From: Pelagomonas calceolata
Lineage: Eukaryota; Sar; Pelagophyceae; Pelagomonadales; Pelagomonadaceae
NCBI GenBank assembly: GCA_918797485.1
Contig: CAKKNE010000002.1
Span: 3,190,501-3,254,500 of the forward strand
Length of the DNA: 64,000 nucleotides
Direction of reading: 5' to 3'
Shown piece after piece: positions 881 through 61,237 of the stretch; within the stretch, counting starts at the first letter, position 1, and each line of letters begins with the position of its first letter. The position numbers and the translations under genes were made by a program. The notes beneath the pieces were generated by a model, which was not told the DNA's origin, ran no database searches, and saw only the letters and a program-made list of their open reading frames with translations.

Positions 881-904
881 GCTAGCGGCCTGTAAGACAC
901 TAGC
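881..904 (-). promoter_or_regulatory. Dyad promoter element, 18-bp class (VPS53 upstream)
   Basis: GCTAGCGGCC then TGTAAGACACTAGC. The CTAG cores start at 882 and 900, 18 bp apart. It lies 262 bp upstream of the VPS53 start. The rest of the 620-1039 gap shows no gene. Confidence 0.75.
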
Positions 905-1039
905 AATCAGGCGGGTTTTGAGCGTTTTTACGCGGTCAAGCGCTGACGCGCGGTCCCCCCGAGGCGAGGCTCCTCCGACGAGTCCTACTCCACCCGCCAC
1001 GCCGTCGCCGCGGCGCACTGGAATCGACATCGTAGCAAC

Positions 1040-2155
1040 TTAGCTCCCCCGCGTCGGCTCCCACGGCCGCTGCGGGATCTGCGCGCGCGCCCGATCTCTC
1101 AACACGCAGAGCATCTCGCGCTTGTATTTTTCTTGGGACGGCCGCTTGCTCAGACACGACCAGGGCCCCTCGCCGAGCTCCCTATCTTTGTCATCTTCCC
1201 TAATGAGCGCGACGTTCTGTGTGAGTTCCGGCGTGTTGTCGCCGATGTCGCAGATCTTGTACGCGCGCGTGCAGAGCATGCGGTTGATGCGCGTCGCGAC
1301 GTCGCTATTCCTTAAACCTTTGTCCTTCTGGAACATCGTGGGTGGCGCCACGGCCGGCGAGACCTTGGCCGTCGTCCTTCTAGAGCGTTTTGTCGAGGTC
1401 AGCGACTTGCGCGAAGCTGTTTGAGAACCGCCGAAGCCCACTCTAAGAGGCTTCCTCGCAACTAAGGGATACATGACGCGCATCTTTTTAATGCGGTCCT
1501 CGCGAAAGGCCAACACGCGCTGCTGCATCTCGTGGAAGCGCATGGTCCCGTCCGGCGACGTCTCCACCCCTTCAAAGATGTCCCTGACCTCATCTTTTGA
1601 CAACTGCGGCATGAGGCCCTTGCCCCGCTTCGACTTCATACGCGCGTCAGCTTGACTTATCAATTCGTTCTGCTGCTCCTCACTCAACGTGCATAGGGCC
1701 CTCCCTTCTGAGACGTAAACCTGCAGGCAGTCCTCCCTTTCAAACTGGTGGCACATCGCGTCTAATTCCCACCTCCCCAAAACATGCTGGCCCTTCGGGC
1801 CACTTCGTAACTGCTGCTGTCGGTCTAACGGTCCATAGAACCCAAATGCGTACAATCTTCCAGTGGACAGCGGGTGGTAGAGGTCCGCCGGGAAGACGAA
1901 GCTGATGAGGTCGTCGATCGACACTAAACTCTCTGGATTTTCACCCTCGAAGCCCGTTAACGCGAACCTTGTGCGCTGGGGCTCCGGCTCCTGGTCTAGG
2001 TCCGGCGCGGCCTCGGCGGTCTCGGGCCGGCTGCCCTGGGCTGAGCCCTGGGCTGATTCCTGGGCCGTCGCGGGCCGGCTGCCTTCCTGGCTGCCCTGGG
2101 CCGTCGCGGGCCGGCTGGGGTCGGCCTCCTCCGGTGCCGCTTCCGCGTCGGCCAT
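1040..2155 (-). CDS. EF-hand-like protein of unknown function, possible ciliary protein
   Basis: 371 residues. The first ~60 are low-complexity with repeats of SRPATAQ and SAQGS. A conserved-looking body follows (FALTGFEGENPESLVSIDDL, then FPADLYHPLSTGRLYAFGFY). Around residues 165-225 two helix-loop-helix-like stretches occur (LSEEQQNELISQADARM; LSKDEVRDIFEGVETSPDGTMRFHEMQQRV). The second resembles a degenerate EF-hand, with a DGT-rFhE loop. The basic C-terminus has TASRKSLTSTKRSRRTT and a tail rich in Arg and Lys. The layout recalls flagellar-associated EF-hand proteins, but I cannot name the family. The gene diverges from NCA2 and shares a promoter gap with a dyad element at 2304. The start is the first Met of the frame. 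Confidence 0.7.
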   Translation of the reverse strand: MADAEAAPEEADPSRPATAQGSQEGSRPATAQESAQGSAQGSRPETAEAAPDLDQEPEPQRTRFALTGFEGENPESLVSIDDLISFVFPADLYHPLSTGRLYAFGFYGPLDRQQQLRSGPKGQHVLGRWELDAMCHQFEREDCLQVYVSEGRALCTLSEEQQNELISQADARMKSKRGKGLMPQLSKDEVRDIFEGVETSPDGTMRFHEMQQRVLAFREDRIKKMRVMYPLVARKPLRVGFGGSQTASRKSLTSTKRSRRTTAKVSPAVAPPTMFQKDKGLRNSDVATRINRMLCTRAYKICDIGDNTPELTQNVALIREDDKDRELGEGPWSCLSKRPSQEKYKREMLCVLRDRARAQIPQRPWEPTRGS

Positions 2156-2303
2156 GGCTCTTCGTGCTCCTTTGCGGCTGCCCTTCGCGGCGCTGCGAGT
2201 TGCGAGCGGCTGTACGTGAGGCTAGTGGAGTCGGTCTGGGCGTCGAATAAACGGCCTGAACTGGCTCAGGGAAGTGTTCCTTGGTCCTAGACGTGCGGGT
2301 TTC

Positions 2304-2325
2304 GCTAGCGGAGTGAGACACTAGC
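2304..2325 (-). promoter_or_regulatory. Dyad promoter element, 16-bp class (EF-hand gene / NCA2 divergent promoter)
   Basis: GCTAGCGGAGTG then AGACACTAGC. The CTAG cores are 16 bp apart (2305, 2321). It is 149 bp upstream of the minus gene and 229 bp upstream of NCA2. Nothing else is recognised in 2156-2553. Confidence 0.7.
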
Positions 2326-2553
2326 GTTTCCCGACTCGTTTGCTCCGGCGGGTCGTTTGAACCGCTACAGCAGAAGCGGTGAAGACTGATCAGTGATATA
2401 CAAAGCCAGGCAGTGCGCGCATCTTTGAAAAACGCGAATTGCAGCGAAACTCCGCTGAACGGCCGCAAAAGTGAGTTGCCACACACACTGACTTGCTCGC
2501 AGCACTGATAGCTCCGTTACTGATTCCCCGTCACGCGCTGGAAACCGTGAACC

Positions 2554-4140: not shown

Positions 4141-4189
4141 TGTGCAAGTGTTGTAAGCAAATTATTATTATGATATACTATGTTCACGG

Positions 4190-4660
4190 GAACGATAGCG
4201 AGTCTGATGTGTAAAATCTTCGTGCAGTGGACGTACCAAAAGCCGGCATGAACTTCGTGAAGAAGAACTTGAGGAAGCCGCTGATCGTGTACTCGGGCGT
4301 TCCACTTCTTCTCGGCGCTTCCTCGGCGACCTGCTTCTGGTACTTGAAGACTGCGTAGACGAAGACGAAGCCTGCGAGGGCGACGTCCTCAGAGCGCGCG
4401 TAGGCGACGGACGACTCGAAACGGCAAAATTATCGATTTGGGCGCCGCGGCTCGCAGAAGCCCGCGATCATCACGAAGGGGATTAGGCGAATTACGAGGT
4501 CCCACGCGCCGGACGCGCCGAGCGCCGCCGCCGCGGCCAACGCCACAGCTGCTCCAGCAATTTCGATCATGTTATCGCGGCGATGGCGTACGTCACCGTG
4601 CGCCGTCGCGTGCGGCTTGCGAGTCGATATGATGACGCGCGCGGCGATGGCGTACCACCA
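4190..4660 (-). pseudogene. Small membrane-protein remnant with an in-frame TAA, or an unresolved two-exon gene
   Basis: On the minus strand a frame begins near MIEIAGAAVALAAAAALG, continues through a second hydrophobic helix (GAWDLVIRLIPFVMIAGF), meets TAA at 4432-4430, and then continues in the same frame with another helix (DVALAGFVFVYAVFKYQ) and a basic amphipathic tail (ISGFLKFFFTKFMPAFG). Either this is a decayed gene or a short intron removes the stop. No canonical GT..AG pair flanks the stop closely. I do not recognise the protein. It lies in the gene-poor 4.1-6.4 kb tract beside repeats. Confidence 0.3.
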
Positions 4661-4672
4661 CGCCGTCGCCCA
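4577..4672. repeat. Two copies of a GCGGCGATGGCGTAC-type motif
   Basis: Near-identical GCGGCGATGGCGTAC segments occur near 4577 and 4642, each followed within 20 bp by a CGCCGTCGC string. A related GTCGCGGCGATGGCGTGG lies at 5366-5383. They mark this tract as repeat-bearing. Their origin is unknown. Confidence 0.4.
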
Positions 4673-7822: not shown

Positions 7823-7846
7823 GCTAGCGTGCTGTAAGACACTAGC
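7823..7846 (-). promoter_or_regulatory. Dyad promoter element, 18-bp class (RsmB / RRF divergent promoter)
   Basis: GCTAGCGTGCTG then TAAGACACTAGC. CTAG cores at 7824 and 7842. It lies 156 bp from the RsmB start and 105 bp from the RRF start. Confidence 0.8.
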
Positions 7847-11624: not shown

Positions 11625-12090
11625 ATGGGGGGGGACACAAAAATGGGAGGGCGGGTTCTCGATGAGCCTTGCTTCAGCAGTTCCGGGGATTTGTCCGGAG
11701 GGAGGCCTCTAGCCGGCTCGTCGACCAAACCTCGTGTTTGGGGACGGCCGATTCGGGACCCTAAATTGGCCGTCGTCGTGCCATTAAGCGCCTCTACCGA
11801 GCCGCAGGCTGCTCCTACGCAAAAACTTCATCGATGGCGCACCGTCAGTGGGCCCTCACGGACATCGTCAAGCAGTGGCTGTTGATACCGGCACGCCGCG
11901 GCGGAGATACGGGGCTGCCAATTGCATCGGTGCGGTAATATTAGGGTCCCGAATCGGCCGTCCCCAAACGCGAGGTTTGGTCGACGAGCGGGCTAGAGGC
12001 CTCCCTCTGGACAAATCCCCGGAACTGCTGAAGCAAGGCTCATCGAGGTCTTGCGCTAGAACCCGGTTTGGGGTTAGTGTCCCCCCCCCT
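11625..12090. mobile_element. Non-autonomous inverted-repeat DNA transposon (MITE-like), 466 bp
   Basis: The termini are ATGGGGGGGGACAC (left) and, read inwards from the right, AGGGGGGGGGACAC. Inside are two 105-bp arms, 11660-11764 and 11941-12045, that are inverted copies of each other with three mismatches by eye. About 176 bp of unrelated sequence lies between them. The element is flanked by an exact 8-bp direct repeat, CTGGCTGC. It has no convincing ORF. Long inverted repeats plus an 8-bp duplication fit a cut-and-paste element (hAT-like by duplication length, but the G-run terminus is not a standard hAT end). The near-identical arms suggest recent activity. It sits 142 bp upstream of the next gene's start codon. 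Confidence 0.8.
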
Positions 12091-12922: not shown

Positions 12923-12946
12923 GCTAGCGACCTGAAACACACTAGC
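12923..12946 (-). promoter_or_regulatory. Dyad promoter element, 18-bp class (kinesin upstream)
   Basis: GCTAGCGACCTG then AAACACACTAGC. CTAG cores at 12924 and 12942. It lies 290 bp upstream of the kinesin ATG, in the tandem gap 12805-13235. Confidence 0.7.
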
Positions 12947-15803: not shown

Positions 15804-16289
15804 TCAGATGTAGCCGAGGTACTGCGGCTTCCTCCCGCCGATGATTTTCTTCGACAGGACCGGCGCGGACGCGTGGCAGAGGGCCAGCGCGGCCGCGGCC
15901 CGCGCGGCCTGAGTGACGTGCGGCGCGACGGCCGCGGGCGCGTTCGTCGAGAGGGCCCCCAGCGCGGCCGCCCAGGCCGCGGCGTAGAGGGCCATCGTCA
16001 TCCAACACCGCGTCCGCGCCGTCGCGAGGGCGCCGACGGCGGTGACGACGAGGAGCGCGCCGACGGCGTCGTAAGCCGGTGCGCCGCCGGCGAGGTCGCA
16101 CCACGGCCCGCGCGCCGCGCAGAAATCGACCGGGTCCGTCAGCAGGTGATAGCCCGTCCAGAGCAGGACGACGGGAGTTATGCGGTAGAGGAGGGCGTAC
16201 AAAGCCACGTAGGCGAAGGTGCCCAGGAGGATGGCGGCGGACGTGAGGGTGGCTACCGCGCCGACGCCGAGCACTAATGCCTCAGGCAT
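15804..16289 (-). CDS. Four-helix membrane protein, unknown
   Basis: 161 residues, almost entirely hydrophobic, with segments at about 4-25, 27-50, 72-90 and 97-118 plus an amphipathic Ala-rich stretch, ending KKIIGGRKPQYLGYI. One predicted loop holds DFCAARGPWCDLAGG, with two cysteines that could pair. The KK near the C-terminus is compatible with ER residence but is not at the canonical position. No family recognised. A dyad element lies 143 bp upstream. Confidence 0.6.
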   Translation of the reverse strand: MPEALVLGVGAVATLTSAAILLGTFAYVALYALLYRITPVVLLWTGYHLLTDPVDFCAARGPWCDLAGGAPAYDAVGALLVVTAVGALATARTRCWMTMALYAAAWAAALGALSTNAPAAVAPHVTQAARAAAALALCHASAPVLSKKIIGGRKPQYLGYI

Positions 16290-16431: not shown

Positions 16432-16455
16432 GCTAGTGTCTTACGTGCCGCTAGC
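16432..16455 (+). promoter_or_regulatory. Dyad promoter element, 18-bp class
   Basis: GCTAGTGTCTTAC then GTGCCGCTAGC. CTAG cores at 16433 and 16451. It lies 143 bp upstream of the minus-strand gene starting at 16289. Confidence 0.8.
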
Positions 16456-16552
16456 CCTCGGATCTAAACGCGGAGCCCTTGATTTGCGCGCGCGGTCTAT
16501 CGGTACATATCCCGGACATATGAGAGCTCACAATACAATTAAAACAGTCATC

Positions 16553-17773
16553 CTAGTCCGGCCGCAGCCGGTCGCCGGCGCGCGGCTTGTCGTACCCGTA
16601 AAATTCCGCGAGGCGCAGCATCTCCGCCGCGAGCGGCTTGTCGACGCGTCGCAGGTCGCGCCAGGACAGGCGCAGGCGCCCCTCGTTGCGCCGGTTCGCG
16701 CCGTCGTCGAACGGCCCGACTTCAAAAATCCGCTCCCACCGCTCGCGGAGCGCCGGCAGCCACGCGCGCCATCCGCGGTGCGCGCACGTCTCCGCGGCGG
16801 CGGCCAGCCGTTGAGGCGGCTTCGCGGCGGCCGCGGCCTTGGAAACGATGGCGCAAACGCCGTCGTCCTGCTCGACGCGGACGACGCCGGCCGCCGCGCC
16901 CTTTTTAATAAGAAGCTCGAGCGCGCCGTAGTAGGCCGCCCAGGCCCGGGCGAAGCCGTGCGCGCACGAGATTTGCGCGAGCGGCGCCTCCTCCAGCCCG
17001 ACAATGCGCGCCATGGCCAGGATCTGCGGCTCAACCGAACGCGTCCCGTTCGCGGCGAGCGCCCCGTCGCCGCAAAAACCAGCAACGAGGGACTCGACGG
17101 TGCGCAGCGGGTGTCTCACCAAAACGACGGGCTTCGGCGCCAGCTGGATGGGGCACGTGCCCTTGGCGCCGCAGCCGCGCCAGCGCCGCGCCGCCGCCGG
17201 GCACGCTTTCCGCCAGCATTGACCGATGCGCTTCATCGCGCCGCCCGGCGCCGCGCCGCGGTGGTCCCGCTCCTCGCCGCACTCGCCGCGCGCGTCCAAA
17301 AATATTAGTTGGGGGTGCCACGCGCGCTTCAGATTAGTCAAACAGAGCGGGTCCCGCTCCTTGTCGTCGAGCGGATCTAAATAAAGGAGCGCATGCGCGT
17401 AGCCGACGGCGCCGTCCCGCCCATCAAAGCGCTCGTGCGTCACGTCCAGCCCCAAGGCCCGCAGCTCGCGACTCGTGTGCACCGTCCCGGAACCCATCGC
17501 TCCGACGACGACCACGGACGCCACGCGCGACGGGGGTCCGTCCCGCAGGAGCGTGCAGAGCGTGTACGTGGCCACGCACGCTACGACGAACCGCGTCGCG
17601 CGCCACCGGCTCCGCGGCGGCGCGCGCGGCATGAGTCGCCGCCGCGGCGGGAGGCCGCGGTAGTAGCGCGGCGTCGGCCGCGGCGAGCGCACGGTCGGGT
17701 GCCAGCGCACGTGCGGGCTTCTCTCGGGCGGCGGCGGTGGCGGTGGCGGCGCGCTTTCCGTGTGGCGGCGCAT
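16553..17773 (-). CDS. Type II membrane sulfotransferase-like protein
   Basis: 406 residues. A Pro/Arg-rich cytosolic tail is followed by one membrane anchor (about 62-80, FVVACVATYTLCTLL) and a lumenal domain. VASVVVVGAMGSGTVHTSRE fits the 5'-phosphosulfate-binding loop of PAPS-dependent sulfotransferases. VVLVRHPLRTVESLVAGF fits the 3'-phosphate-binding strand (R-x-P-x-x...S). Paired cysteines (CWRKACPAAARRWRGCG) suggest lumenal disulfides. The product would modify glycans or glycoproteins in the Golgi. The acceptor cannot be deduced. The loop has Gly-Ser-Gly-Thr rather than the most common Arg-Ser-Gly-Thr, so activity is not certain. An internal Met near residue 48 is an alternative start. 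Confidence 0.65.
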   Translation of the reverse strand: MRRHTESAPPPPPPPPERSPHVRWHPTVRSPRPTPRYYRGLPPRRRLMPRAPPRSRWRATRFVVACVATYTLCTLLRDGPPSRVASVVVVGAMGSGTVHTSRELRALGLDVTHERFDGRDGAVGYAHALLYLDPLDDKERDPLCLTNLKRAWHPQLIFLDARGECGEERDHRGAAPGGAMKRIGQCWRKACPAAARRWRGCGAKGTCPIQLAPKPVVLVRHPLRTVESLVAGFCGDGALAANGTRSVEPQILAMARIVGLEEAPLAQISCAHGFARAWAAYYGALELLIKKGAAAGVVRVEQDDGVCAIVSKAAAAAKPPQRLAAAAETCAHRGWRAWLPALRERWERIFEVGPFDDGANRRNEGRLRLSWRDLRRVDKPLAAEMLRLAEFYGYDKPRAGDRLRPD

Positions 17774-17963: not shown

Positions 17964-17987
17964 GCTAGCGTAATGTAAGACACTAGC
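17964..17987 (-). promoter_or_regulatory. Dyad promoter element, 18-bp class (sulfotransferase / GNAT divergent promoter)
   Basis: GCTAGCGTAATG then TAAGACACTAGC. CTAG cores at 17965 and 17983. It lies 191 bp from the minus start and 83 bp from the plus start. Confidence 0.8.
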
Positions 17988-22347: not shown

Positions 22348-23685
22348 CTAACTCTCTTTACCATTGTAATACCAAGAGTGAATAATACGACCATCGTCAA
22401 CCATACCAAAACCAAGTTGCAATTCATCAAAATCGCAGGCTTCGACCGTCGCGCCGCGGTCCTTCAAGAGATCGACGATGCCTTGACACAGTACACGATC
22501 TAGTCCGGCGCGGTCGCTATCGTACTCGCGCAGAGACCAGCCCAGACCCCTAAGATTCGGGCAGCCCTGGAGGAGGCGGAGCACGTCAGCGGCGCTGAGT
22601 GGACTTCCTGGTTCCGGGGGATCCGAGGCGGAGTACTCAATTGTGATACTAGAGAGCGTCGCTGCGGACTGGCTCCGAGTTATTGCGTCGACAATACCCG
22701 AGGTCAAGAGGCCGAGATACTCGAGCTCCAACCACTCCAGGCGTAAGTGAGAGCAGGCCGCAGCAATACATGCGTCCGTCGTCGTTTCGTCTTCGAGATG
22801 GAGGCACGTGATCCGCGCAGTCGTGCGCGAGAGATCAATATAAAATCCTGGCCCCGGCATCGAAGAACCCTGGGGTATTTTGAGCGAGCAAAACTCCGGA
22901 AAGCCGCGGGCCGCGGCAAGAATTGCATCGGGTTCGAGCACAGTGTCGTCATCGATCTCGCCAAAGTGCTGGAGGCTATCGCCGAGGGGCGTGCCGACGA
23001 TGGCCTCGATAACGTCAGCGGTGACATGGCAGCCATCTAATTCCAGGTACCTCGCGTGGCGGCAAGTGAGCGCCGTTTTTCTTATGGCATCGATGAGCGT
23101 CGGCCTGTAGGGTCGGCTGCCGCCGTCGAATAATAAATTGACGTGATTAAGCCGGGGGAAATGGTGCTCGTAAGTTTCTGCGGGACTGTGCCCAATGTGC
23201 GAGAAGCTTACCTCATTCAAATCGGGACAGGCCGCACTGATGGAAATCACGGTACTATCAGGGATAGCAACACTCGATGGACCTCGTAACTTGGTTAATT
23301 TTGGCGATGCCTGGCACATCCTCAGTAGTGCCTCCGCCGTAACGTCGCAGGTCCATAAATTGAGCGAGAACAAACCACCATTCGTTCTCCGGACGAACGC
23401 GTCGAGCGCCGCGATCCTTTCCGGGGAACGAACATGGGCGGAGAGACGAATGCAACCGGCGCCGAACACGCGCCCCACGGCCTCGTCGCGTCGCGGATCC
23501 GCTTCGCCGCGAAAGTGAACATGCCGGCACAGGAACGAGCACGACGACGAGAGCCCGCGCTGCGCCAATGCGAGCCCGCTTTTGGAGGTCGCGCGCAAGG
23601 CGTATAATTCCTTGCTTATCCGGAAGCTGTACTGTGCCACCTTCGTGGTGAGGACCTCTTCTGGCAGAGAATATGTGGTGCCCAT
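22348..23685 (-). CDS. Leucine-rich-repeat protein with F-box-like N-terminus
   Basis: 445 residues. The N-terminus (LPEEVLTTKVAQYS, then SKELYALRATSKSGLALAQ) has the P-E-x-L and L-x-x-x-S-K spacing of an F-box. It is followed by irregular LRRs of the AMN1/FBXL type, visible as repeated L-x-x-L-x-L-x-x-C/L units (LFSLNLWTCDVTAEALLRM; ARYLELDGCHVTADVIEAI; LEWLELEYLGLLTSGIVDAI). If the F-box is real it would be a substrate adaptor of an SCF ubiquitin ligase. Codon use is visibly less GC-biased than in neighbouring genes. The start is the first Met. Confidence 0.65.
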   Translation of the reverse strand: MGTTYSLPEEVLTTKVAQYSFRISKELYALRATSKSGLALAQRGLSSSCSFLCRHVHFRGEADPRRDEAVGRVFGAGCIRLSAHVRSPERIAALDAFVRRTNGGLFSLNLWTCDVTAEALLRMCQASPKLTKLRGPSSVAIPDSTVISISAACPDLNEVSFSHIGHSPAETYEHHFPRLNHVNLLFDGGSRPYRPTLIDAIRKTALTCRHARYLELDGCHVTADVIEAIVGTPLGDSLQHFGEIDDDTVLEPDAILAAARGFPEFCSLKIPQGSSMPGPGFYIDLSRTTARITCLHLEDETTTDACIAAACSHLRLEWLELEYLGLLTSGIVDAITRSQSAATLSSITIEYSASDPPEPGSPLSAADVLRLLQGCPNLRGLGWSLREYDSDRAGLDRVLCQGIVDLLKDRGATVEACDFDELQLGFGMVDDGRIIHSWYYNGKES

Positions 23686-23838: not shown

Positions 23839-23862
23839 GCTAGTGTCTTACATGCCGCTAGC
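23839..23862 (+). promoter_or_regulatory. Dyad promoter element, 18-bp class (LRR / parvulin divergent promoter)
   Basis: GCTAGTGTCTTAC then ATGCCGCTAGC. CTAG cores at 23840 and 23858. It lies 154 bp from the LRR start and 92 bp from the parvulin start. Confidence 0.8.
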
Positions 23863-23953
23863 TCTCGCAACAAACGCGCTTTGCTGCCGGCCTCTCTCCG
23901 CATCCTGTGTTTGTTTTCGACTCCTCTTTTGGCTGCTGTTGGATCGCTGCATA

Positions 23954-28896: not shown

Positions 28897-30666
28897 CTAG
28901 GGCGTCAGGCGCCCCGGGTCGCGCGGGAAGCACGAGGTCTTGCGGATGTTCGTCAAATCCAAAAAGAGCATGACCACCCGCTCCAAGCCGACGCCGCCGC
29001 CGCCGTGCGGGAACGCGCCGAACTTGAACGCATCGGTATAACCCTTGATGGAGTCGGGGTGCGGCCCGCCGTGGCCCGCGTCGCCGTGGCAGTGGTTGAC
29101 CCGCTCCATGAGTAAGGTATGGTCGTGGATGCGCTGCGCCCCGGAGCAGATCTCTTGACCCCGCATGAAGATGTCGTAGCTATTGGACAACTGTTCCGCC
29201 GCGGGTACTTTCTTATAAGTAGCAGGATCCGGCATGGTATAGAACGGTCGGATCGACAGGGGGTACTTGTCCATGATATAAAAGTCGGTATCGTACTTTT
29301 CTAAGATGAGATCGCCCAAGATCTTCTCATTTACCGTAGATAGATCATCAAAAGCGCCCTGTTGTTCTTCGGTGACGCCCGCTTCTCGCAGCAACGCAAT
29401 ACCCTCCGCAAAACTAATTCTGAGAGGCTTATCCAAAAATTTGAACGGCTGGAACGGGTAGACCTGCGATACCAACTCCAGCTCCTTGCCGTACTTATTT
29501 TGTAAAGTACGGAAGATATGGTTGAATAACTTGCCGAACAAATCCAGGACCTCGTAGTAGTGCTCGTAGATGGCCATCTCGAAGTCGAGGCCCGTGAACT
29601 CGCACAAATGCCTCCGCGTGTTGCTGTCCTCCGCGCGGAAGACGGGGCCGATCTCGTACACTCGTTCGAAGTCGGCGCATGCTGAGAGCATCTGCTTGTA
29701 GAGTTGGGGCGACTGGGCTAAGCAGCAGTCCCTTCCAAAGTACTCGAGCTTGAATACCGACGAACCACCTTCTGATGATCCAGCTAACAATTTAGGGGAG
29801 TTGACTCCCGTAAAGCCCTGGTCGTTGAGGTAGGACGCAAATAAGAGAGGTACCGCACTTCGAATGCGCATGATGGCCTGGTTGGCCGGGGTTCGTAGAT
29901 CAATCACCCTATGATTCAAGCGCGTGTCCAACCCAACCGTGACTTCGCCCTCCTTCGGGTCGTTCTCGTTGCGACTCGCGTCGACGATCTGGAACGGCAG
30001 ATCGGGTACGGCTTTGGACACGATAAAGCACTTCTTGATCGCGAGCTCGACAGTCGATTGGGTGGTGGCCGAGACCTGGGCCGATGCTACTGAAGCTTCC
30101 ACATCTACAATAGATTCGGAGGGGATCTTGCCCAGGAACGCGACCATGGCCTTGGGGATGGCCGGGGCGCTTGCGACGCCCTGCACCGTGAAGCAGCCCT
30201 GCCTCAGGACGACGAACGCTAAATTGCCCTTCGCTCTGACAGCATGCACTCTAGCGCGGACCCACACGTCGCTCCCGATCAAATGAGGTCCCACAGCACC
30301 GACGGACGTCCACCGCCGCGCCGTCATGGACGCACTCATACAAACCCCGGGCTCGCCGAAGACGTCGGCCGACGCGGCTTCCGCTTCTTTGGCCTTGGCC
30401 GCGTCCTCGGCCGCCTTCTTCTGCTTGGCTAATATCCTCAATTCTTTTTTGGAGGGGCCTTGCGGCGCCTTGGCCTTCTCCTTCTTCTTTTTTTTATCTA
30501 CAATGGCTAAAGCGTGATTGGGGTCGAGGGCCGTGATCTCCTGCTTGAGTTTCAATAAGCCGGCGACCTCGGCCTTGATCGTGTCGGCGTCGGCTTTGCT
30601 GGTCTTGAGCTCCTTGACCTTGAGGCCTTGCGCGCTGATCTGCTGCTCGAGCTCGGGGACGCCCAT
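28897..30666 (-). CDS. DARS1: Cytosolic aspartyl-tRNA synthetase with WHEP domain
   Basis: 589 residues. The N-terminal helical hairpin (QISAQGLKVKELKTSKADAD, then AEVAGLLKLKQEITAL) is a WHEP domain, followed by a Lys-rich linker. The OB-fold anticodon domain (about 120-235) contains DVWVRARVHAVRAKGNLAFV. The class II core has motif 2 GPVFRAEDSNTRRHLCEFTG and motif 3 GGGGVGLERVVMLFLDL, plus the archaeal/eukaryotic AspRS signature PKLLAGSSEGGSSVF and the ending IRKTSCFPRDPGRLTP. It is full length for the eukaryotic cytosolic type. The reaction charges tRNA-Asp with aspartate using ATP. There is no organelle leader. Confidence 0.95.
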   Translation of the reverse strand: MGVPELEQQISAQGLKVKELKTSKADADTIKAEVAGLLKLKQEITALDPNHALAIVDKKKKKEKAKAPQGPSKKELRILAKQKKAAEDAAKAKEAEAASADVFGEPGVCMSASMTARRWTSVGAVGPHLIGSDVWVRARVHAVRAKGNLAFVVLRQGCFTVQGVASAPAIPKAMVAFLGKIPSESIVDVEASVASAQVSATTQSTVELAIKKCFIVSKAVPDLPFQIVDASRNENDPKEGEVTVGLDTRLNHRVIDLRTPANQAIMRIRSAVPLLFASYLNDQGFTGVNSPKLLAGSSEGGSSVFKLEYFGRDCCLAQSPQLYKQMLSACADFERVYEIGPVFRAEDSNTRRHLCEFTGLDFEMAIYEHYYEVLDLFGKLFNHIFRTLQNKYGKELELVSQVYPFQPFKFLDKPLRISFAEGIALLREAGVTEEQQGAFDDLSTVNEKILGDLILEKYDTDFYIMDKYPLSIRPFYTMPDPATYKKVPAAEQLSNSYDIFMRGQEICSGAQRIHDHTLLMERVNHCHGDAGHGGPHPDSIKGYTDAFKFGAFPHGGGGVGLERVVMLFLDLTNIRKTSCFPRDPGRLTP

Positions 30667-30821
30667 GGCTTTGCTGTGGCGTGCTGCTTGAGGTGGTCGC
30701 GTCGGCTAGCGTGCGGTTGCAGCTGTGTTGATGCTGCCTTGTTCTTGCAATCGCCGTGCAGCAATGGCAAGCAAGTGAACGCCCACTCGCTGTGTGTGGC
30801 TCGTCGACGATTTTTGGGAGA

Positions 30822-30842
30822 GCTAGTGTCTTACAACGCTAG
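30822..30842 (+). promoter_or_regulatory. Dyad promoter element, 16-bp class (AspRS / HAD-ankyrin divergent promoter)
   Basis: GCTAGTGTCTTAC then AACGCTAG. CTAG cores at 30823 and 30839. It lies 156 bp from the AspRS start and about 320 bp from the HAD start. The rest of 30667-31160 shows no gene. Confidence 0.75.
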
Positions 30843-31160
30843 GGTCGATGTTTCTCCAGCAGTCTTCTTTCGCTGCATCTCAGTGCCGAAAGCACGCATG
30901 GCTCATGCAAGGCCACGGCCCCTGAAGCTTGGACTTTTGGCCACCGCAGTCCGTGATTGATGCCCCATTAATCGGCTGGTGATTGGGTTGCAAACGACAT
31001 AACCTGCGAAGGACGCGAGTTCGATTGCATCTATCGCTGCTGCATATTGGCAGACTTTGGTAGGGAGAGCAGACAGCTCACCACTCAAAGACTCAAACGT
31101 GCGCTGCTTTGATAGGTTGCACGCCACGCATTTGCGACCAGGATCACGCGTTGTGTGTGA

Positions 31161-32318
31161 ATGCGTTCGAAACTCCTGATGATGGCCGCGCGCGGCCTGT
31201 CAACGACAGCACGGCGCCCGCTGCGAGGCGTCGTCTTCGACCTGGACGGCACGCTCACGGTGCCGAACCTGGATTTCAAGGTCATGTACGAGCGCTGCGG
31301 CGTCCCTCAGAACGAGGACATTCTCGAGGCCATCGCGGCGATGCCCGACGCCGAGGCCGCAACAGCCGCGGCGATCGTCGAGGAGATGGAGGAGGAAGGG
31401 CGCCGGACCTTGGAGCTGACGCCGGGCGCGCGGGAGTTCGCCGAGTGGCTGGCGCGGCAGGGCATTCCCACGGCCCTCGTGACGCGCAACACACGCGCAA
31501 CAATCGACCACCTCCACGCGACGCTCTGGAAGGGCCTGCCGCCCTTTTCGCCCGCGATTTCTAGGGATGACACCTACGCGCCCAAGCCGCATCCCGCGGC
31601 GCTCGAGGCCATTTTGAAGACGTGGGAGATCGCTGATCCGGCCGAGGTTGTGATGGTCGGGGACTCGCCGGCGAACGACGTGGTCTTCGGGAAGAAAGCG
31701 GGCGTGGCGACGGCGCTCGTCGACTCCGGAAGACGGTTTGTAGAAGGTGGCTCCGACGAAGGCGCTTCCATGGTAGTGGAGAACATCGCGGCCTTGGCCG
31801 CCGGCTTCCACGAGCGCTTCGAGCTCCCGAAGGCGGGCCCGCTTCAGAAGTACGACGTCCCTTCTCCTAGTTCGGACGCGGGGAAGGCGGCGGTTGCTGG
31901 GGACCTGGCCCGCCTCGAGGCCTGCGCCGACGTCTCTCTTCCCGACGCCTCGGGGAACACGCCGCTCATCTGGGCGGCCGACAGCGGGGCCGCCGACGTT
32001 ATTCCTTACTTGCGGGACCGCTGCGACGTGAATCACCGCGGCTATCTTGGTGCAACTGCTGTGTGTCGCGCGGCCCGCAAGGGCCATCTCGACGTTTTAC
32101 AATTATTGCTCAAGGCGGACGTAGACGTTAATCTACCGAATGACAAGATGCAGTCGCCGTTGCACTTCGCAGCCTTCAAGCAGAACCGCGCTTGCGTGGA
32201 TGCGCTGCTCGCCGCCGGTGCGTCGACGTACGTCCTCGACCGCAAGGGCCGCACGCCGGCGGAAGACACAAGTGACGAAGAGATCCGCGCGGCCATCCTG
32301 GATGGCCGCGCTAGCTAG
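31161..32318 (+). CDS. HAD-superfamily phosphatase fused to ankyrin repeats
   Basis: 385 residues. A short basic leader (AARGLSTTARRPLRG) could target an organelle. The HAD domain (about 22-215) has motif I VVFDLDGTLT, motif II TALVTRNTRAT, motif III with KPHP and motif IV VVMVGDSPANDV. All catalytic aspartates and the Lys are present, with a helical cap between motifs I and II, as in the phosphoglycolate phosphatase-like subgroup. Three ankyrin repeats follow (about 240-370): DASGNTPLIWAADSGAADVI, YLGATAVCRAARKGHLDVLQ, KMQSPLHFAAFKQNRACVDA. The ankyrin end presumably binds a partner. The substrate cannot be deduced. Starts at Met 7 or 8 are equally possible. Confidence 0.8.
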   Translation: MRSKLLMMAARGLSTTARRPLRGVVFDLDGTLTVPNLDFKVMYERCGVPQNEDILEAIAAMPDAEAATAAAIVEEMEEEGRRTLELTPGAREFAEWLARQGIPTALVTRNTRATIDHLHATLWKGLPPFSPAISRDDTYAPKPHPAALEAILKTWEIADPAEVVMVGDSPANDVVFGKKAGVATALVDSGRRFVEGGSDEGASMVVENIAALAAGFHERFELPKAGPLQKYDVPSPSSDAGKAAVAGDLARLEACADVSLPDASGNTPLIWAADSGAADVIPYLRDRCDVNHRGYLGATAVCRAARKGHLDVLQLLLKADVDVNLPNDKMQSPLHFAAFKQNRACVDALLAAGASTYVLDRKGRTPAEDTSDEEIRAAILDGRAS

Positions 32319-32340
32319 TGTTGTAATATGCAAAAAGTTA

Positions 32341-32997
32341 CTACGCGTGCAGCGCCGCGAGCTTCTCGTTGAGCGACTTCAGGAGCCCGCTCTCCGTCTC
32401 GAGGGCGGCCCTCAACTCCGTGACGATGCCCTCGGCCTCCTTGGCGATCCTGGCGAGGTCCTCCGGGGTCGTCGCGGCGGCCGCCGGCGCCGCCGGCGCC
32501 GGCGACGCGGCGGCCTCGGTCGCCGACATGGCCGGCGTCTTATCCTCCTCGACGGGCTCGACGGTCGCCGCCGCCGCTGCCTCGGCTTTCTTCGCGGCCC
32601 GTGCGGCCTTTCGCTCCTCCTTGGTCGATCCGTCGGACGCTGCGGTCTCAGAGACGGGCTCGACCGTCGCGGCGGCCGGCGCCGCGGCTGCGGCCGGCGC
32701 GGCCGCTGTGGCCGCCGGCGCCGCGGCCGTGGCCGCCGGCGCCGCCGGTGCCGCCGCGGCGGCGGCCTTGGCCTTCTCGGCCTCGGCGAGCATGGCCTTG
32801 GCTTTTTCCATAGCGGCGGCAGCTTCAGCCATGGCCTTCTCGCGCTGCGCCTCCTCCTGCTTTTTTAAGTCGGCCGCCTCGTCCTCGGGGACCAAATTCA
32901 CCTCCTGGAGCGTGCGGCCTCGGCTGCGCGTTGCTCTCAGGTTGTCCGCATGGGAGAGGCTGAGGGCCAATGCTACGACGAGCTTGCGCAGCATCAT
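32341..32997 (-). CDS. Secreted Ala/Pro-rich coiled protein, related to the N-terminus of the 39.2-kb gene product
   Basis: 218 residues. The signal peptide is MMLRKLVVALALSLSHA. A charged helix follows (DLKKQEEAQREKAMAEAAAA, then MEKAKAMLAEAEKAKAA), then Ala-Pro low complexity and a C-terminal helix VTELRAALETESGLLKSLNE plus KLAALHA. The same order and similar local sequence (signal peptide, LRG/RR-LE block, QEEA coil with M-A-K-A-x-A, Ala/Pro run, then L-x-A-x-L-x-x-E-S-x-L-L-x-x-L-x-x-K-L) occurs in the first ~270 residues of the protein encoded at 39238. Function unknown. Confidence 0.65.
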   Translation of the reverse strand: MMLRKLVVALALSLSHADNLRATRSRGRTLQEVNLVPEDEAADLKKQEEAQREKAMAEAAAAMEKAKAMLAEAEKAKAAAAAAPAAPAATAAAPAATAAAPAAAAAPAAATVEPVSETAASDGSTKEERKAARAAKKAEAAAAATVEPVEEDKTPAMSATEAAASPAPAAPAAAATTPEDLARIAKEAEGIVTELRAALETESGLLKSLNEKLAALHA

Positions 32998-33210: not shown

Positions 33211-34629
33211 TCACCCGCGCGGCATCTCCGAGTAGTCGTCGACGACGAAGGAGCCGCTCGTCGCTCGCGTCGTCGGCGCGGCCTCCTCCATGAGCGGCTC
33301 CTCCAGGGAGTCCTCCGTCGGCGCGCGCCGCCGCGGCACCAAACCCGCGGTGTGCGGGTCGACGCGGCCTACCAACGCCAGCCAGACCAATGCCGCGATT
33401 AATTGTGTTGCGGCAGTCACGACAAACGTCAGGGCGTACCCTCCTCGATCGACCAAATAGCCGCCGAGCACGGCGCTCCCCGACCAGCCGAACCGTGTGA
33501 CCCCGTCGAGCGCGTTCCAGCGGCCTCGACTCGCGTGAGGCACGTGGTCGTTGAGCGCCGCCTTTTTTAATGGGCGACAGGCGTGCTGCGCGCAAGTGAG
33601 CAAATATAAGAGAACTGCACCGGCGCGCTTGATGGTTGACGTCAACGCGGGCCGCCCGGGGCGCAGGACGTTTAGACGCCCTGCGTCGGCCCAAGCCAGA
33701 CCTATCAGTGCAATCGCGGCCAGGACCATGCAGACGGCGCAGACGCGAGCTTTCCCGGCGGACTGGCTCCACCGCTCGCAGACCCGCGACCCGCAGATCA
33801 TAACTAAAGCGGCGCCGATGGACAACGCGTTCGCCGCGACGGGCGAGAAGGCCGCCCGGTTCTTGAAGAAGAGCGGAATAAACTTCACCGTCATGCCCGA
33901 CCCGAAGCCTGATATTAGATCCGCCACCAGTATCAGCCGCGCGATGCCCTCGTCGCCCTCCTTGTCTGCCTCCTCGTCGTCGCACGCATCCGCGCCCACG
34001 TCTCGCAACCCCAGTAAGAGGAGCGCCGGCGGCGCGCACAGCGCCAGACCGACGACTGCCACTGTTTTCAGCGCGGCGAGGGACCAGTCGTCCCCAATGC
34101 ATAGGAAGAGCACCAGCGCCAGCGCCGGGCCCGCCGTCGTCGCCAAAAGGGTCAGCATGAATTTTTGTGATGTCGCCTCGGCGCGTTGCGCGCCGCGCGT
34201 CGTCGAGTCCGCGAAGAGCGTCTCGAGGGCCGTGCTCCACACTCCTTGATACGCGCCGAACGCCGCAAGGCCGACCGTGACGTAGTCGAAGCGCGCCCGG
34301 GCGGAGACGTCGCTTACGGCAATGGCCAGGATCAGTCCTAACGAGGCCACCACGCCCGTGACGCAGGCGACGCGGCAGACGGTCCGCCGCCGGAACCGGT
34401 CGGCCGCCCAGCCCGCGAGCAGGCCGCAGGCGCACTGCGCGATGCCCTGGGCGCCCTCGGCGAGGCCCACCCGCGCGTTCGACCCGCCCGTGAGCACGTA
34501 GAGGTAGCCGCTCAGCACGGCGTAGGACCAGACTCCTCGTGCCGCGCCGGCCGCCAGCGTGAAGGCGTAGGCGAGGCTGAGGTTTCTTGCTTTTGTCTTG
34601 TCGATTGTTGGTGTGGGTGGAGCGCACAT
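33211..34629 (-). CDS. Major facilitator superfamily transporter
   Basis: 472 residues from the ATG at 34629. The frame is open to 35136, but the extra N-terminal ~169 codons cross the dyad element at 34826 and are not protein-like, so the Met before PPTPTIDKTKARNLSLAYAF is used. About 11-12 hydrophobic helices occur. The loop after helix 2 is GLLAGWAADRFRRRTVCRV, the MFS signature (G-x-x-x-D-R-x-x-R-R). The acidic tail has EDSLEEPLMEEA, a dileucine-like ELL/EPLM sorting motif. The closest style is the DUF/MFS_1 group of algal transporters. The substrate is unknown. Confidence 0.75.
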   Translation of the reverse strand: MCAPPTPTIDKTKARNLSLAYAFTLAAGAARGVWSYAVLSGYLYVLTGGSNARVGLAEGAQGIAQCACGLLAGWAADRFRRRTVCRVACVTGVVASLGLILAIAVSDVSARARFDYVTVGLAAFGAYQGVWSTALETLFADSTTRGAQRAEATSQKFMLTLLATTAGPALALVLFLCIGDDWSLAALKTVAVVGLALCAPPALLLLGLRDVGADACDDEEADKEGDEGIARLILVADLISGFGSGMTVKFIPLFFKNRAAFSPVAANALSIGAALVMICGSRVCERWSQSAGKARVCAVCMVLAAIALIGLAWADAGRLNVLRPGRPALTSTIKRAGAVLLYLLTCAQHACRPLKKAALNDHVPHASRGRWNALDGVTRFGWSGSAVLGGYLVDRGGYALTFVVTAATQLIAALVWLALVGRVDPHTAGLVPRRRAPTEDSLEEPLMEEAAPTTRATSGSFVVDDYSEMPRG

Positions 34630-38913: not shown

Positions 38914-38935
38914 GCTAGCGACCTAAGACACTAGT
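38914..38935 (-). promoter_or_regulatory. Dyad promoter element, 16-bp class (PSMB6 / 39.2-kb gene divergent promoter)
   Basis: GCTAGCGACCT then AAGACACTAGT. CTAG cores at 38915 and 38931. It lies 183 bp from the proteasome start and 303 bp from the plus start. The rest of 38732-39237 shows no gene. Confidence 0.75.
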
Positions 38936-45143: not shown

Positions 45144-45980
45144 TTACTTGCCCGGCGAATTCAGGAGCCCCTCGAAGAAGCTTCGCGCGTTGGACGACTC
45201 CGGCGTCGGCGCCGCCGCGGCCGCCGCGGCCGTGGGCGTCGCCGGCGCCTCGTGATCACCCGCGCGATTTGCCAGGTTCTGGAGCCACGCGTCCCGGTCC
45301 TCGATCACGGTTGGTGGCGCCGCCAGCTCCTCCACGACGCCGTCGTCGCCGTCCGGCGCGTCCAAAGCGGCCTCGCCCGGCGCGTAGAAGGCCTCGTCGC
45401 CGTCGTAGCGCGACGCCGGGGACGCCGCGCCCGTCAGCAACGCCATCAACGCCTCGCGGAGCGTCGCCCGCATCGTCGCGTCGCCCGCCTCGCGCAGCGC
45501 CGCGAGCGCGACGCCCGCGTCGCCGCAGCGCCGCCGCAGCGCGCCCAGCCGCGACCCGCCGAAGGCGATTACCAAAGTGGGCGCGCCGTCGAGCGCCGTG
45601 AGCCAGCTCTGGAAAGCGGCGGCCGGCGCGTGGCCACCGTCGACGACGACGACGGCGGCGGAGTGCGAGGCGGCGCGCAGGGCGCCTCCGACCGCGCTCT
45701 CCGGCCTCACGAGGTCCGCGGCGACGGCGGGCCGGCCCACGACTTGCCACGTCTCGGCGCCCTCGACCGCGGAGACCGCGCAGCAGCCGACCGTCGCGGA
45801 CTCCGTTGATACATCATCGCTCAGGGCCGCGCGCGCCAGCTCGACGAGCCGCGTCGTCGCCGCGCAGATGACGACGCGACGCGGCGGCGGCGGTTGGGGG
45901 GCGGCGCAGAGCTCGTCCCAGAGCGCTGCGACGGGCGCCGTCTCGGTTTGCGGCGGTGGCGGCGCGACGGCGGCGGCCAT
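45144..45980 (-). CDS. Unrecognised protein with Rossmann-like/GTPase-like core
   Basis: 278 residues. It alternates predicted strands and helices: RRVVICAATTRLVELARAAL, HSAAVVVVDGGHAPAAAFQS, then APTLVIAFGGSRLGALRRRC, with a disordered acidic and Ala-rich tail ending NARSFFEGLLNSPGK. The pattern (buried VVVVD, W-L-x-x-L, LVIAFGG, R-x-x-C-x-D-x-G-V) vaguely recalls the pseudo-GTPase fold of alpha/gamma-adaptin-binding protein p34 (AAGAB), but no diagnostic motif is present, so I do not assign it. Its stop is 10 bp from that of the converging gene. Confidence 0.6.
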   Translation of the reverse strand: MAAAVAPPPPQTETAPVAALWDELCAAPQPPPPRRVVICAATTRLVELARAALSDDVSTESATVGCCAVSAVEGAETWQVVGRPAVAADLVRPESAVGGALRAASHSAAVVVVDGGHAPAAAFQSWLTALDGAPTLVIAFGGSRLGALRRRCGDAGVALAALREAGDATMRATLREALMALLTGAASPASRYDGDEAFYAPGEAALDAPDGDDGVVEELAAPPTVIEDRDAWLQNLANRAGDHEAPATPTAAAAAAAPTPESSNARSFFEGLLNSPGK

Positions 45981-46128: not shown

Positions 46129-46150
46129 GCTAGTACGTCGCAACGCTAGC
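46129..46150 (+). promoter_or_regulatory. Dyad promoter element, 16-bp class (45.1-kb / 46.2-kb divergent promoter)
   Basis: GCTAGTACGTC then GCAACGCTAGC. CTAG cores at 46130 and 46146. It lies 149 bp and 48 bp from the two starts. The core is ACGTCG rather than GTCTTAC. Confidence 0.7.
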
Positions 46151-47301: not shown

Positions 47302-47663
47302 GAAAGACTGCTAGGACTTCTTCTTAGCGCCCCCCTTTCTTTCTTCCAGGCCGCGCTCAAAGCGGGTTGTGGTTCTGTAGAGAATACTTGTTATAGACAT
47401 GACACTAACACGGCCGCGTGCGAGATGCCTCCGGAGGGAGTGCGTCGCACAGCAACCGTGGGCGGCCCTAACAGTCCGGTCCTGTCGCAATAACCAGTCC
47501 GATCCGTTCCCGACCGCTCGCCTCTTAATACGCGACCACCATTCGGCAGATGGTGGCCACGGACGCCGACCTGACCTCGGGGGCCTTCCGACGCTCGGTA
47601 ATCTAACCCAAAGTTTTCTTCTTGCACGATCCGCTCCGTCGAGCGTCGTGCTCGCCGCTCACG

Positions 47664-47800
47664 TGTCCGTAGTAAATTCGCAGCGGCGCGTTGTACTAAA
47701 TCCGTATGGATCCATAGTAATACCGCGGTGTCCGTAGTAAATCCGCGGTGGACAGTTGTACTAAATCCGTGGGGGTCCGTCCTAGTAATCTCCATACTGG
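47664..47800 (+). repeat. Imperfect 66-bp tandem units with GTCCGTAGTAAAT / TTGTACTAAATCCG motifs
   Basis: Units begin GTCCGTAGTAAAT at 47664 and 47730, with a shorter GTCCGTCCTAGTAAT at 47775. TTGTACTAAATCCGT recurs inside. A perfect palindrome TATGGATCCATA lies at 47705-47716. No coding sense. Confidence 0.65.
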
Positions 47801-47822
47801 TCTGTTGTACTAAAGATAATGG

Positions 47823-48015
47823 TAGGACCGCGGTCGTGCCTCCGCTATATATAATACACGACCCGCGAGTGTGCTCATGGCCTCGTCGGCGTCTCTGACT
47901 CATGGCCTCGCACACGTAATATAAATTGTAGGGCGTCAACTAAGCGACGACATGTCGGCGATACCGACTCTAATAGTAGGACCGCGTTCGTGCCTCCGCT
48001 ATATATGATGCACGG
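47823..48015 (+). repeat. Direct repeats of a ~38-bp TATA-containing unit, 154 bp apart
   Basis: TAGGACCGCG(G/T)TCGTGCC then TCCGCTATATAT(A/G)ATRCACG occurs at 47823-47860 and 47977-48014. Between them CTCATGGCCTCG also occurs twice (near 47873 and 47899). The interval 47302-48150 has no supported gene. It may be a decayed repeat element or a promoter duplication. Confidence 0.65.
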
Positions 48016-48150
48016 CGGCCGCGAACTAGGCAAACGGATTCGGTGCGCCGGTGCTGCCGAGGCCCCTAGACACCACCACATCTTTGTTAGGAATGTTGTT
48101 TAGGAACATCAAGTTGTGTTTGAAGGTCTCAGCCATCAGGTGGGTCACCT

Positions 48151-48576
48151 TCAATGACACCTTGTGTTGACGACGGAAGGCCAATTGCTGGGCGGCGGAA
48201 CGCTCAATTTTACTGTTTTTTTGGCCGGTTTAAAACCCTGAATATGCTCGCGACGTTCTTTCCGATTCGGCTCTTCGTTGGTAGCCGTCGCCTTCAGACC
48301 TTTAGTGAAAAGGCGTTCATCTTGATCACGCTTCCGTCGGTTGCTGCGTTCGTTCACACGTTTGAAATGGCGTAAACGGTAACGTTTCTTCGTATCAGCA
48401 TCTAGATCGACGGGCTTCGTCGGATATGACGAGCCCGACCCGTTTCCACCCAAAGCAATTACCGTCGACGGACCGCCGCCGCCGTCTTGGGGCCCCAAGG
48501 CCTTCTTGTGCGCATCTTTGGTCCCGCCGGGCCCGCTCCCGACATCTCCCGTTCGTGGCGAAGCGCCACGGTCCAT
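48151..48576 (-). CDS. Possible basic protein, unknown (low confidence)
   Basis: 141 residues, Gly/Ser-rich then strongly basic (LRHFKRVNERSNRRKRDQDE, then PNRKERREHIQGFKPAKK). Two other frames are open over its 5' half, and splicing with an upstream exon is possible. The minus-strand sense is supported by composition and by the dyad element 199 bp upstream. Function unknown. Confidence 0.35.
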   Translation of the reverse strand: MDRGASPRTGDVGSGPGGTKDAHKKALGPQDGGGGPSTVIALGGNGSGSSYPTKPVDLDADTKKRYRLRHFKRVNERSNRRKRDQDERLFTKGLKATATNEEPNRKERREHIQGFKPAKKTVKLSVPPPSNWPSVVNTRCH

Positions 48577-48774: not shown

Positions 48775-48798
48775 GCTAGTGTCTCAATAGACGCTAGC
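48775..48798 (+). promoter_or_regulatory. Dyad promoter element, 18-bp class
   Basis: GCTAGTGTCTCAA then TAGACGCTAGC. CTAG cores at 48776 and 48794. It lies immediately after the stop of the small Lys-rich reading frame (48802) and 199 bp upstream of the minus ORF at 48576. Confidence 0.7.
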
Positions 48799-52225: not shown

Positions 52226-52247
52226 GCTAGCGTATCGACATACTAGT
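52226..52247 (-). promoter_or_regulatory. Dyad promoter element, 16-bp class (Sec20 upstream)
   Basis: GCTAGCGTATC then GACATACTAGT. CTAG cores at 52227 and 52243. It lies 196 bp upstream of the Sec20 ATG and only 6 bp outside the inverted-repeat element. Confidence 0.7.
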
Positions 52248-54684: not shown

Positions 54685-54707
54685 CCTAGCGTCTGTAACG
54701 CACTAGC
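54685..54707 (-). promoter_or_regulatory. Dyad promoter element, 17-bp spacing (IST1 / aminotransferase divergent promoter)
   Basis: CCTAGCGTCTG then TAACGCACTAGC. CTAG cores at 54686 and 54703, the only clear copy with 17-bp spacing. It lies 142 bp and 93 bp from the two starts. Confidence 0.7.
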
Positions 54708-58555: not shown

Positions 58556-58599
58556 GCCCCTGTCTACTAACCTGAACGTTGTATGAAAACATCACATTC

Positions 58600-61161: not shown

Positions 61162-61215
61162 TGGCGTATGAAACTGCACCAATGCACGTTATGCAAAGTT
61201 CAGGCCTGCATTCAG

Positions 61216-61237
61216 CCTAGTGTATCGACACACTAGC
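61216..61237. promoter_or_regulatory. Dyad promoter element, 16-bp class, near-perfect palindrome (OSCA upstream)
   Basis: CCTAGTGTATC then GACACACTAGC. CTAG cores at 61217 and 61233. It lies 55 bp upstream of the OSCA ATG. The remaining gap to 61382 has an AGCCTC triplet repeat and no gene. Confidence 0.75.

What the first reader, a model, noticed from the sequence alone, without database searches (positions are those of the whole stretch)
881..61237. A genome-wide-looking dyad promoter element: GCTAGTGTCTTAC - spacer - CGCTAGC
Seen directly: 15 clear copies (881, 2304, 7823, 12923, 16432, 17964, 23839, 30822, 34826, 38914, 46129, 48775, 52226, 54685, 61216) and about five degraded ones (18975, 33128, 37844, 42770, 56445). 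All are intergenic and at the 5' side of at least one gene, 48-320 bp from a start codon. I found none inside recognised CDS or in 3'-to-3' gaps. Divergent promoters share one copy, and the orientation of the asymmetric core does not track gene orientation. The genes served are unrelated (proteasome, AspRS, SNARE, channel, plastid translation). I know of no described stramenopile element with this sequence. Inference: it is a general promoter or nucleosome-positioning element bound by an abundant dimeric protein that reads CTAG half-sites.
Basis: partly seen in the sequence, partly recalled or inferred. Interest (0 to 1): 0.88.

Follow-up and report, generated by a model that had tools for sequence, protein, structure and literature searches.

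The report
Shared promoter dyad in marine alga
A 22-24 letter DNA signal recurs just in front of unrelated genes in what is probably a tiny marine alga, most likely as the landing site of an unidentified, widely used gene-control protein; it has not been tested experimentally.

Summary
The element is real. All 15 "clear" copies are at the stated places. A matrix scan gives 15 sites at 24 bits or more, nothing between 11.6 and 24.4, and a null of 0.35 sites per 64 kb at 14 bits. Among 18,350 gapped 4-mer pairs in noncoding DNA, the top 26 all lie inside this dyad. All 15 are noncoding, one per gap, in 8 of 10 divergent gaps (P 0.0008), and 47-289 bp from the nearest start codon I chose. There are no target-site duplications above chance. 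The five "degraded" copies are not above chance. Searches by sequence gave 15 further copies on contigs of four bacterial MAGs that are, or probably are, picoeukaryote contamination. All 15 are in stretches called noncoding and 13 are upstream of a called gene. Consensus over 30 copies: GCTAGTGTCTTAC-N2-4-CGCTAGC. Orientation may weakly track the gene (21 of 28, P 0.013, post hoc; 0.036 with one doubtful gene changed). Best reading: a promoter-proximal site for an abundant sequence-specific factor, working like yeast general regulatory factors. The protein, transcription starts and nucleosomes are untested.

The parts
881..904 (-). dyad copy, N14; upstream of minus gene with ATG at 619 (VPS53-like by eye, recalled, not tested)
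2304..2325 (-). dyad copy, N12; divergent gap, ORF 1040-2155 (-) / NCA2 gene 2554 (+)
7823..7846 (-). dyad copy, N14; divergent gap, RsmB/NusB methyltransferase (-) / ribosome recycling factor (+)
12923..12946 (-). dyad copy, N14; upstream of kinesin gene 13236 (+)
16432..16455 (+). dyad copy, N14; upstream of ORF 15804-16289 (-, no Pfam match)
17964..17987 (-). dyad copy, N14; divergent gap, ORF 16553-17773 (-) / GNAT acetyltransferase (+)
23839..23862 (+). dyad copy, N14; upstream of a rotamase-like coding stretch (+, from about 24242) and of ORF 22348-23685 (-, no Pfam match, no HMM coding support); gene assignment doubtful
30822..30843 (+). dyad copy, N12; divergent gap, class II tRNA synthetase D/K/N with WHEP domain (-) / HAD-ankyrin gene (+); present in the relative L015
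34826..34849 (+). dyad copy, N14; upstream of MFS transporter if its start is ATG 34629 (-)
38914..38935 (-). dyad copy, N12; divergent gap, proteasome subunit (-) / ORF 39238 (+)
46129..46150 (+). dyad copy, N12, GTCG-centred variant; divergent gap, ORF 45144-45980 (-) / EF-hand gene 46198 (+)
48775..48798 (+). dyad copy, N14; upstream of ORF 48151-48576 (-, no Pfam match, no HMM support); weakest gene assignment
52226..52247 (-). dyad copy, N12, GTCG-centred variant; divergent gap, ankyrin gene (-, 891 bp away) / Sec20 SNARE (+)
54685..54707 (-). dyad copy, N13; divergent gap, Ist1 (-) / class III aminotransferase (+)
61216..61237 (-). dyad copy, N12, GTCG-centred, nearly perfect palindrome (strand arbitrary); upstream of RSN1_7TM channel gene (-)

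Best explanation
The dyad GCTAGTGTCTTAC-N2-4-CGCTAGC is a promoter-proximal, double-stranded binding site for an abundant sequence-specific protein (or a pair of related DNA-binding modules). It most likely acts like a yeast general regulatory factor site: one copy is placed about 50-290 bp before start codons, once per 5' intergenic gap, and often serves two divergent genes at once by keeping the promoter region open. Shown: the sequence, its statistical strength, its place upstream of genes, one copy per gap, the divergent-gap excess, and recurrence in independent contigs. Inferred: that a protein binds it, that the protein has two flexibly linked contacts (because the spacer varies by 2 bp), and that it acts on chromatin opening or initiation.
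For: 15 of 15 copies noncoding and in 15 different gaps (P 0.0014; 8 of 10 divergent gaps, P 0.0008). Nearest start codon 47-289 bp, sd 68 against 205 for random placement in the same gaps (P 0.006), with start codons chosen by me. Unrelated genes served. Fifteen further copies found by sequence on other contigs are in stretches called noncoding, 13 of 15 upstream of a called gene (contigs). Across 30 copies both CTAG arms, T6 and T10 are invariant while the inner 2-4 bases are free; the copies were found by resemblance, so this is partly by construction, but in the window no site scores between 11.6 and 24.4. No target duplications above chance. No RNA family or tRNA matches.
Against: No transcription-start, chromatin or protein-binding data. 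Only 6 of 16 tandem gaps carry it, so it is not universal. In the one orthologous pair, the dyad (1 change in 22) is no more conserved than its gap (24 substitutions in 468 aligned columns plus 6 indels), although the single change restores the consensus base. The possible orientation bias is unexpected for a purely orientation-free barrier. Two of the 15 gene assignments (23839, 48775) rest on ORFs without Pfam or HMM support, and one relative (L070) lies 388 bp from its gene, counted by hand.
Confidence: 0.62

Rival explanations
1. A regulon-specific activator or repressor site (for example cell-cycle, diel or growth genes) rather than a general factor: a large minority of promoters carry it because they share a programme.
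For: Many bearers are housekeeping-type genes (proteasome, tRNA synthetase, RRF, Sec20, Ist1), and 10 of 16 tandem gaps lack it.
Against: Bearers also include an MFS transporter, kinesin, a channel and an ankyrin gene; a density of 15 per 64 kb is high for a regulon.
Confidence: 0.2
2. A core promoter element that sets the transcription start, like oomycete INR/FPR/DPEP.
For: Located in 5' gaps near start codons; a possible orientation bias.
Against: Oomycete core elements lie mostly within 50-100 nt of the start codon and are orientation-biased (1.8-5.9 forward:reverse; PMC3599244 passages). Here distances run 47-289 bp in the window, one copy serves two divergent genes, and the sequence does not resemble YCAYTYY, MWTTTNC or SAASMMS (by eye).
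Confidence: 0.07
3. A boundary, insulator or replication-origin site that happens to lie in 5' gaps.
For: One copy per gap and a divergent-gap excess; yeast Abf1 and Reb1 also have such roles (recalled).
Against: The constrained distance to start codons favours a promoter role; nothing here tests origins or contacts.
Confidence: 0.08
4. A mobile element or its footprint (MITE, introner terminal repeat).
For: Dispersed 22-24 bp dyads; introns of introner-like length are reported in Pelagomonas (PMC9481584 passage). One pair of copies (16432 and 23839) aligns over 41 bp at 88%, about 17 bp beyond the dyad.
Against: Direct repeats of 4 bp or more flank 2 of 15 copies against 1.04 expected; apart from that one pair no sequence shared outside the dyad was seen by eye or by self-BLAST; copies are in noncoding gaps at one per gap; the unit is only 22-24 bp.
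Confidence: 0.02
5. An RNA hairpin in 5' untranslated leaders.
For: The arms can pair (GCUAGUG with CGCUAGC).
Against: Both orientations occur, one copy serves two divergent genes, and the window has no Rfam match at gathering scores. No folding was run.
Confidence: 0.01

Closest known systems
Yeast general regulatory factor sites (Reb1, Abf1, Cbf1, Rap1)
   Same: Sequence-specific sites in promoter regions of unrelated genes; Abf1's site is bipartite with a free spacer (recalled). GRFs act as barriers that help maintain nucleosome-depleted regions (PMC11069190 passages).
   Different: Unrelated sequence (recalled comparison); longer; variable spacer of 12-14 between CTAG arms; protein unknown; no chromatin data.
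Animal long promoter motifs (ZNF143/THAP11 M4 site ACTAYRNNNCCCR; Drosophila Motif 1 and DRE)
   Same: Long promoter motifs of many genes (M4 and THAP11 from the PMC5006282 abstract start in a search listing; ZNF143, Motif 1, DRE and their use in bidirectional promoters recalled).
   Different: Sequence differs; the lineage is distant; no homologous factor tested.
Oomycete core promoter elements INR, FPR, DPEP
   Same: Stramenopile promoter motifs near start codons; that paper also mentions non-oriented motifs 75-300 nt upstream of the TSS (PMC3599244 passages).
   Different: Those three are 7-nt, oriented and near the TSS; different sequence (by eye).

Membership tests
General regulatory factor site (as in yeast) | Enriched in 5' gaps of functionally unrelated genes | tested here: met
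   15 of 15 noncoding, 8 of 10 divergent gaps, varied Pfam families
General regulatory factor site (as in yeast) | Lies in a nucleosome-depleted region and keeps it open | not testable with these tools
   No chromatin data held
General regulatory factor site (as in yeast) | Bound by a known GRF protein | not testable with these tools
   No whole genome held; the binding protein was not sought
Oomycete-type core promoter element | Strand-oriented relative to the gene | tested here: inconclusive
   21 of 28 face one way, P 0.013, post hoc; window alone 10 of 15, P 0.30; 20 of 28, P 0.036, with one doubtful ORF left out
Oomycete-type core promoter element | Fixed position at the TSS | not testable with these tools
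   No 5'-end data; distance to ATG varies 47-289 bp in the window
Transposable element / MITE | Target-site duplications | tested here: not met
   2 of 15 against 1.04 expected, control maximum 4
Transposable element / MITE | Shared sequence beyond the terminal repeats | tested here: not met
   60-bp flanks show no common sequence by eye; one pair, 16432/23839, aligns about 17 bp beyond the dyad
Structured RNA | Match to a known family | tested here: not met
   0 Rfam matches at gathering scores in the window

The most novel reading that the evidence does not exclude
Pelagophyte algae use a lineage-specific architectural promoter factor that reads an unusually long (22-24 bp), flexible-spacer dyad at a large share of their promoters, and it is the organising element of compact bidirectional promoters.
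Probability: 0.4. Interest if true: 0.75.

Novelty: new member of a known kind. Interest (0 to 1): 0.58.

Why it matters
If this is a Pelagomonas-like genome (an abundant ocean alga), it would be a strong, simply defined promoter signal in a lineage for which the search listings I saw named no promoter element. It gives a direct handle for finding its DNA-binding protein, for building expression tools, and for asking how general promoter factors evolve outside yeasts, animals and plants.

Tried and rejected
Mobile element: disfavoured (no target duplications above chance; one pair of copies shares about 17 bp beyond the dyad). RNA element: no Rfam or tRNA match, and both orientations occur. 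Degraded copies and solitary half-sites: not above chance. Mimicry in viruses: the consensus pattern gave 0 hits in viral contigs. A relaxed pattern, which did not cover the N12 form, gave 31 contigs with one match each. Of these, 18 score 16 bits or more and 9 score 24 or more; one (L046) has a second, 17.2-bit site; GC is 0.34-0.52 and none is similar to the window (counted). I read them as chance in a very large collection, which was not tested. L006, titled as an insect symbiont, GC 0.43, looks bacterial by eye; its match is read as chance. Orthologous footprinting on L015 gave no excess conservation. Extending the contaminant search to 389, 90 and 71 genomes (550 in all) found no match beyond the three genomes already known.

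Rows dropped: in relative contigs, L025:848 (13.3 bits, in a coding stretch) and L072:2112 (16.0 bits, arms broken) were not counted as copies. Bare CTAG pairs without the rest of the consensus at L021:3925, L023:5463 and L023:6119 were not counted; they lie in stretches called coding. L014 and L017-L019 were checked only for CTAG pairs (none), and of L016 only the first 6,000 bases were scanned with the matrix. A first ranking of gapped pairs counted palindromic pairs twice; one search replaces it.

Literature: motif strings gave 992 papers; of the 30 listed I saw titles, abstract starts and counts only. Searches for Pelagomonas, Aureococcus, pelagophyte and stramenopile promoter motifs were seen as listings. 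In PMC9481584 the words promoter, motif, upstream, intergenic and transcription factor occur 0 times in the main text; I saw passages of it, not the whole, and no supplements.

Full report
What was checked. The window (64,000 bases, GC 0.645) is eukaryotic nuclear DNA by gene content (proteasome, kinesin, Sec20, Ist1); no whole genome is held for it. All 15 clear copies are at the stated coordinates. CTAG-N12-CTAG occurs 6 times and CTAG-N14-CTAG 9 times against simulated means of 0.27 and 0.22 (the N14 pair at 2287 is a chance pairing, and the copy at 54685 is N13). A two-part matrix (13 + gap + 7) built from the 15 copies scores them 24.4-35.1, with nothing else above 11.6; null means are 0.35 at 14 bits and 0.15 at 16 bits, and leave-one-out scores are 20.9-34.7. 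Over 18,350 gapped 4-mer pairs (gaps 0-20, at least 3 occurrences) in noncoding DNA, each occurrence counted once, the 26 top-ranked pairs all lie inside the dyad; the first outsider is a run of A. These pairs overlap and are not independent.

With the dyads masked, the eight half-site and core words tested were not significantly in excess (lowest P 0.06, GCTAGYGT).

Position. A codon-periodicity HMM trained on 24 ORFs, 21 of them with a Pfam match at or above its curated cut-off, split the window into coding and noncoding (noncoding 16,661 bp). All 15 copies are noncoding, each in a different gap (P 0.0014). They occupy 8 of 10 divergent, 6 of 16 tandem and 1 of 10 convergent gaps; after adding two ORFs without HMM support, 9 of 11, 6 of 16 and 0 of 11. 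The divergent excess has P 0.0008 and 0.0006; absence from convergent gaps is uninformative (P 0.62 and 0.50). Distances to the nearest start codon are 47-289 bp, median 153, sd 68 against 205 at random (P 0.006), using start codons chosen by me. The larger random spread owes much to a few long gaps, and the values for 23839 and 48775 depend on ORFs without Pfam or HMM support. The start used for 34826 was 34628, one base off the ATG at 34629.

Further copies. A scan of bacterial and archaeal genomes with CTAGTGTCTTACN{2,4}CGCTAGC hit six stretches. Five are in four MAGs whose run and isolate names point to seawater (recalled); the sixth (L006) is read as a chance match. L015:17370-19515 is 93.8% identical to window 30610-32735, so one contig end comes from the same or a closely related species. 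Eukaryote-type domains were found on L023 (importin-beta-like, C2), L021 (EDR2_C; IQ just under its cut-off) and L025, a part of L071 (RING). On L022 the matches are not diagnostic, the two ORFs of L016 gave none, and L020 gave MgsA; L069, L070 and L072 were not scanned. For these six, eukaryotic origin rests on the motif and, except in L020, on the coding signal. Relaxed searches in the same four genomes gave more. Not counting the orthologue in L015, 15 further copies were collected: L016 1, L020 1, L021 1, L022 4, L023 1, L069 3, L070 1, L071 2, L072 1. All are in stretches called noncoding. In 13 of 15 a gene start lies on one side, 90-388 bp away (counted by hand; median 162). L020 and L023 sit near contig ends with the other side unknown, and in L020 the HMM called almost nothing coding, so its call is weak. 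In L021 the copy is about 150 bp before a thioredoxin gene, but the EDR2-like gene on the other side looks 5'-incomplete, so the copy could lie in its intron. These copies were found by resemblance to the consensus, which biases their sequence but not their place. The pattern was absent from all but three, already known, of 550 genomes in three classes (389, 90 and 71).

Anatomy (30 copies). Left part G-CTAG-T-G-T-C-T-T-A-C and right part C-G-CTAG-C. Both CTAG arms, T6 and T10 are invariant. C-7 is 29 of 30 and G-6 is 29 of 30. The whole element is 24 bp in 16, 22 bp in 10 and 23 bp in 4. Because CTAG is itself a palindrome, the inverted arrangement rests on the flanking G7 (25 of 30) and its mirror C-7 (29 of 30). 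The halves differ: CTAGT on the left, CTAGC (reverse complement) on the right. A minority variant has a GTCG centre (46129, 52226, 61216, L022:461, L069:8486). The left 13-bp half faces the nearest gene in 21 of 28 placeable copies (P 0.013, post hoc; orientation assigned by hand). Without the doubtful ORF at 23685 it is 20 of 28 (P 0.036).

What it is not. No target duplications above chance; flanks look unrelated, except that 16432 and 23839 align over 41 bp at 88%. No RNA family or tRNA, and no consensus hit in viral contigs. In the one orthologous pair the dyad has 1 change in 22 and the rest of the gap 24 in 468 plus 6 indels (60-bp flanks: 4 of 58 and 6 of 58, plus 4 indels), so this pair gives no evidence of extra constraint; the change is toward the consensus.

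Mechanism. The best reading is a proximal promoter site for an abundant sequence-specific factor, working like general regulatory factors, which bind promoter DNA and act as barriers that help maintain nucleosome-depleted regions (PMC11069190 passages). A rigid dimer would not tolerate a 2-bp spacer change easily (about 70 degrees of helix turn; established knowledge), so flexible contacts are inferred. It is not an oomycete-type core element by sequence or spacing (PMC3599244 passages). Whether it is a GRF site by membership is untested on the defining chromatin features.

Source organism. Pelagomonas calceolata fits: 63% GC, 16,667 genes, 0.45 introns per gene (PMC9481584 passages). This is inference; no named pelagophyte sequence was compared. 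At 15 per 64 kb a genome of about 32 Mb (size recalled) would hold some 7,500 copies; this is extrapolation.

Novelty. A new promoter element is a new member of a known kind. Its length, strictness and density look unusual to me (recalled comparison). I found no description in the searches listed in Tried and rejected, which cover open-licence papers only and were mostly seen as listings.

Noticed in passing
window 11658-11764 and 11941-12047: Inverted repeat with 107-nt arms, 97% complementary, 176 nt apart, fold-back/MITE-like; it sits in one of the two divergent gaps (HMM calls) that lack the dyad.
   Followed up: partly
L015, L016, L020-L023, L069-L072: Bacterial MAG records in the genome collection contain what are, or probably are, picoeukaryote contigs or chimeric contig ends (surest: L015:17370-19515, 93.8% identical to the window; L021, L023 and L071 by domains).
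   Followed up: partly
28 placeable dyad copies: Possible orientation bias: the 13-bp half faces the nearest gene in 21 of 28 copies (20 of 28 with one doubtful ORF left out).
   Followed up: partly
window 46129, 52226, 61216; L022:461; L069:8486: A minority GTCG-centred, more palindromic variant of the dyad, with N12 or N13 in 5 of 5.
   Followed up: no
window 16432-16472 and 23839-23878: Two dyad copies share about 17 bp beyond the dyad (41 bp at 88%).
   Followed up: no
window 47663-48024: Short local direct repeats (51-54 bp, 82-87% identical) beside poorly resolved ORFs.
   Followed up: no
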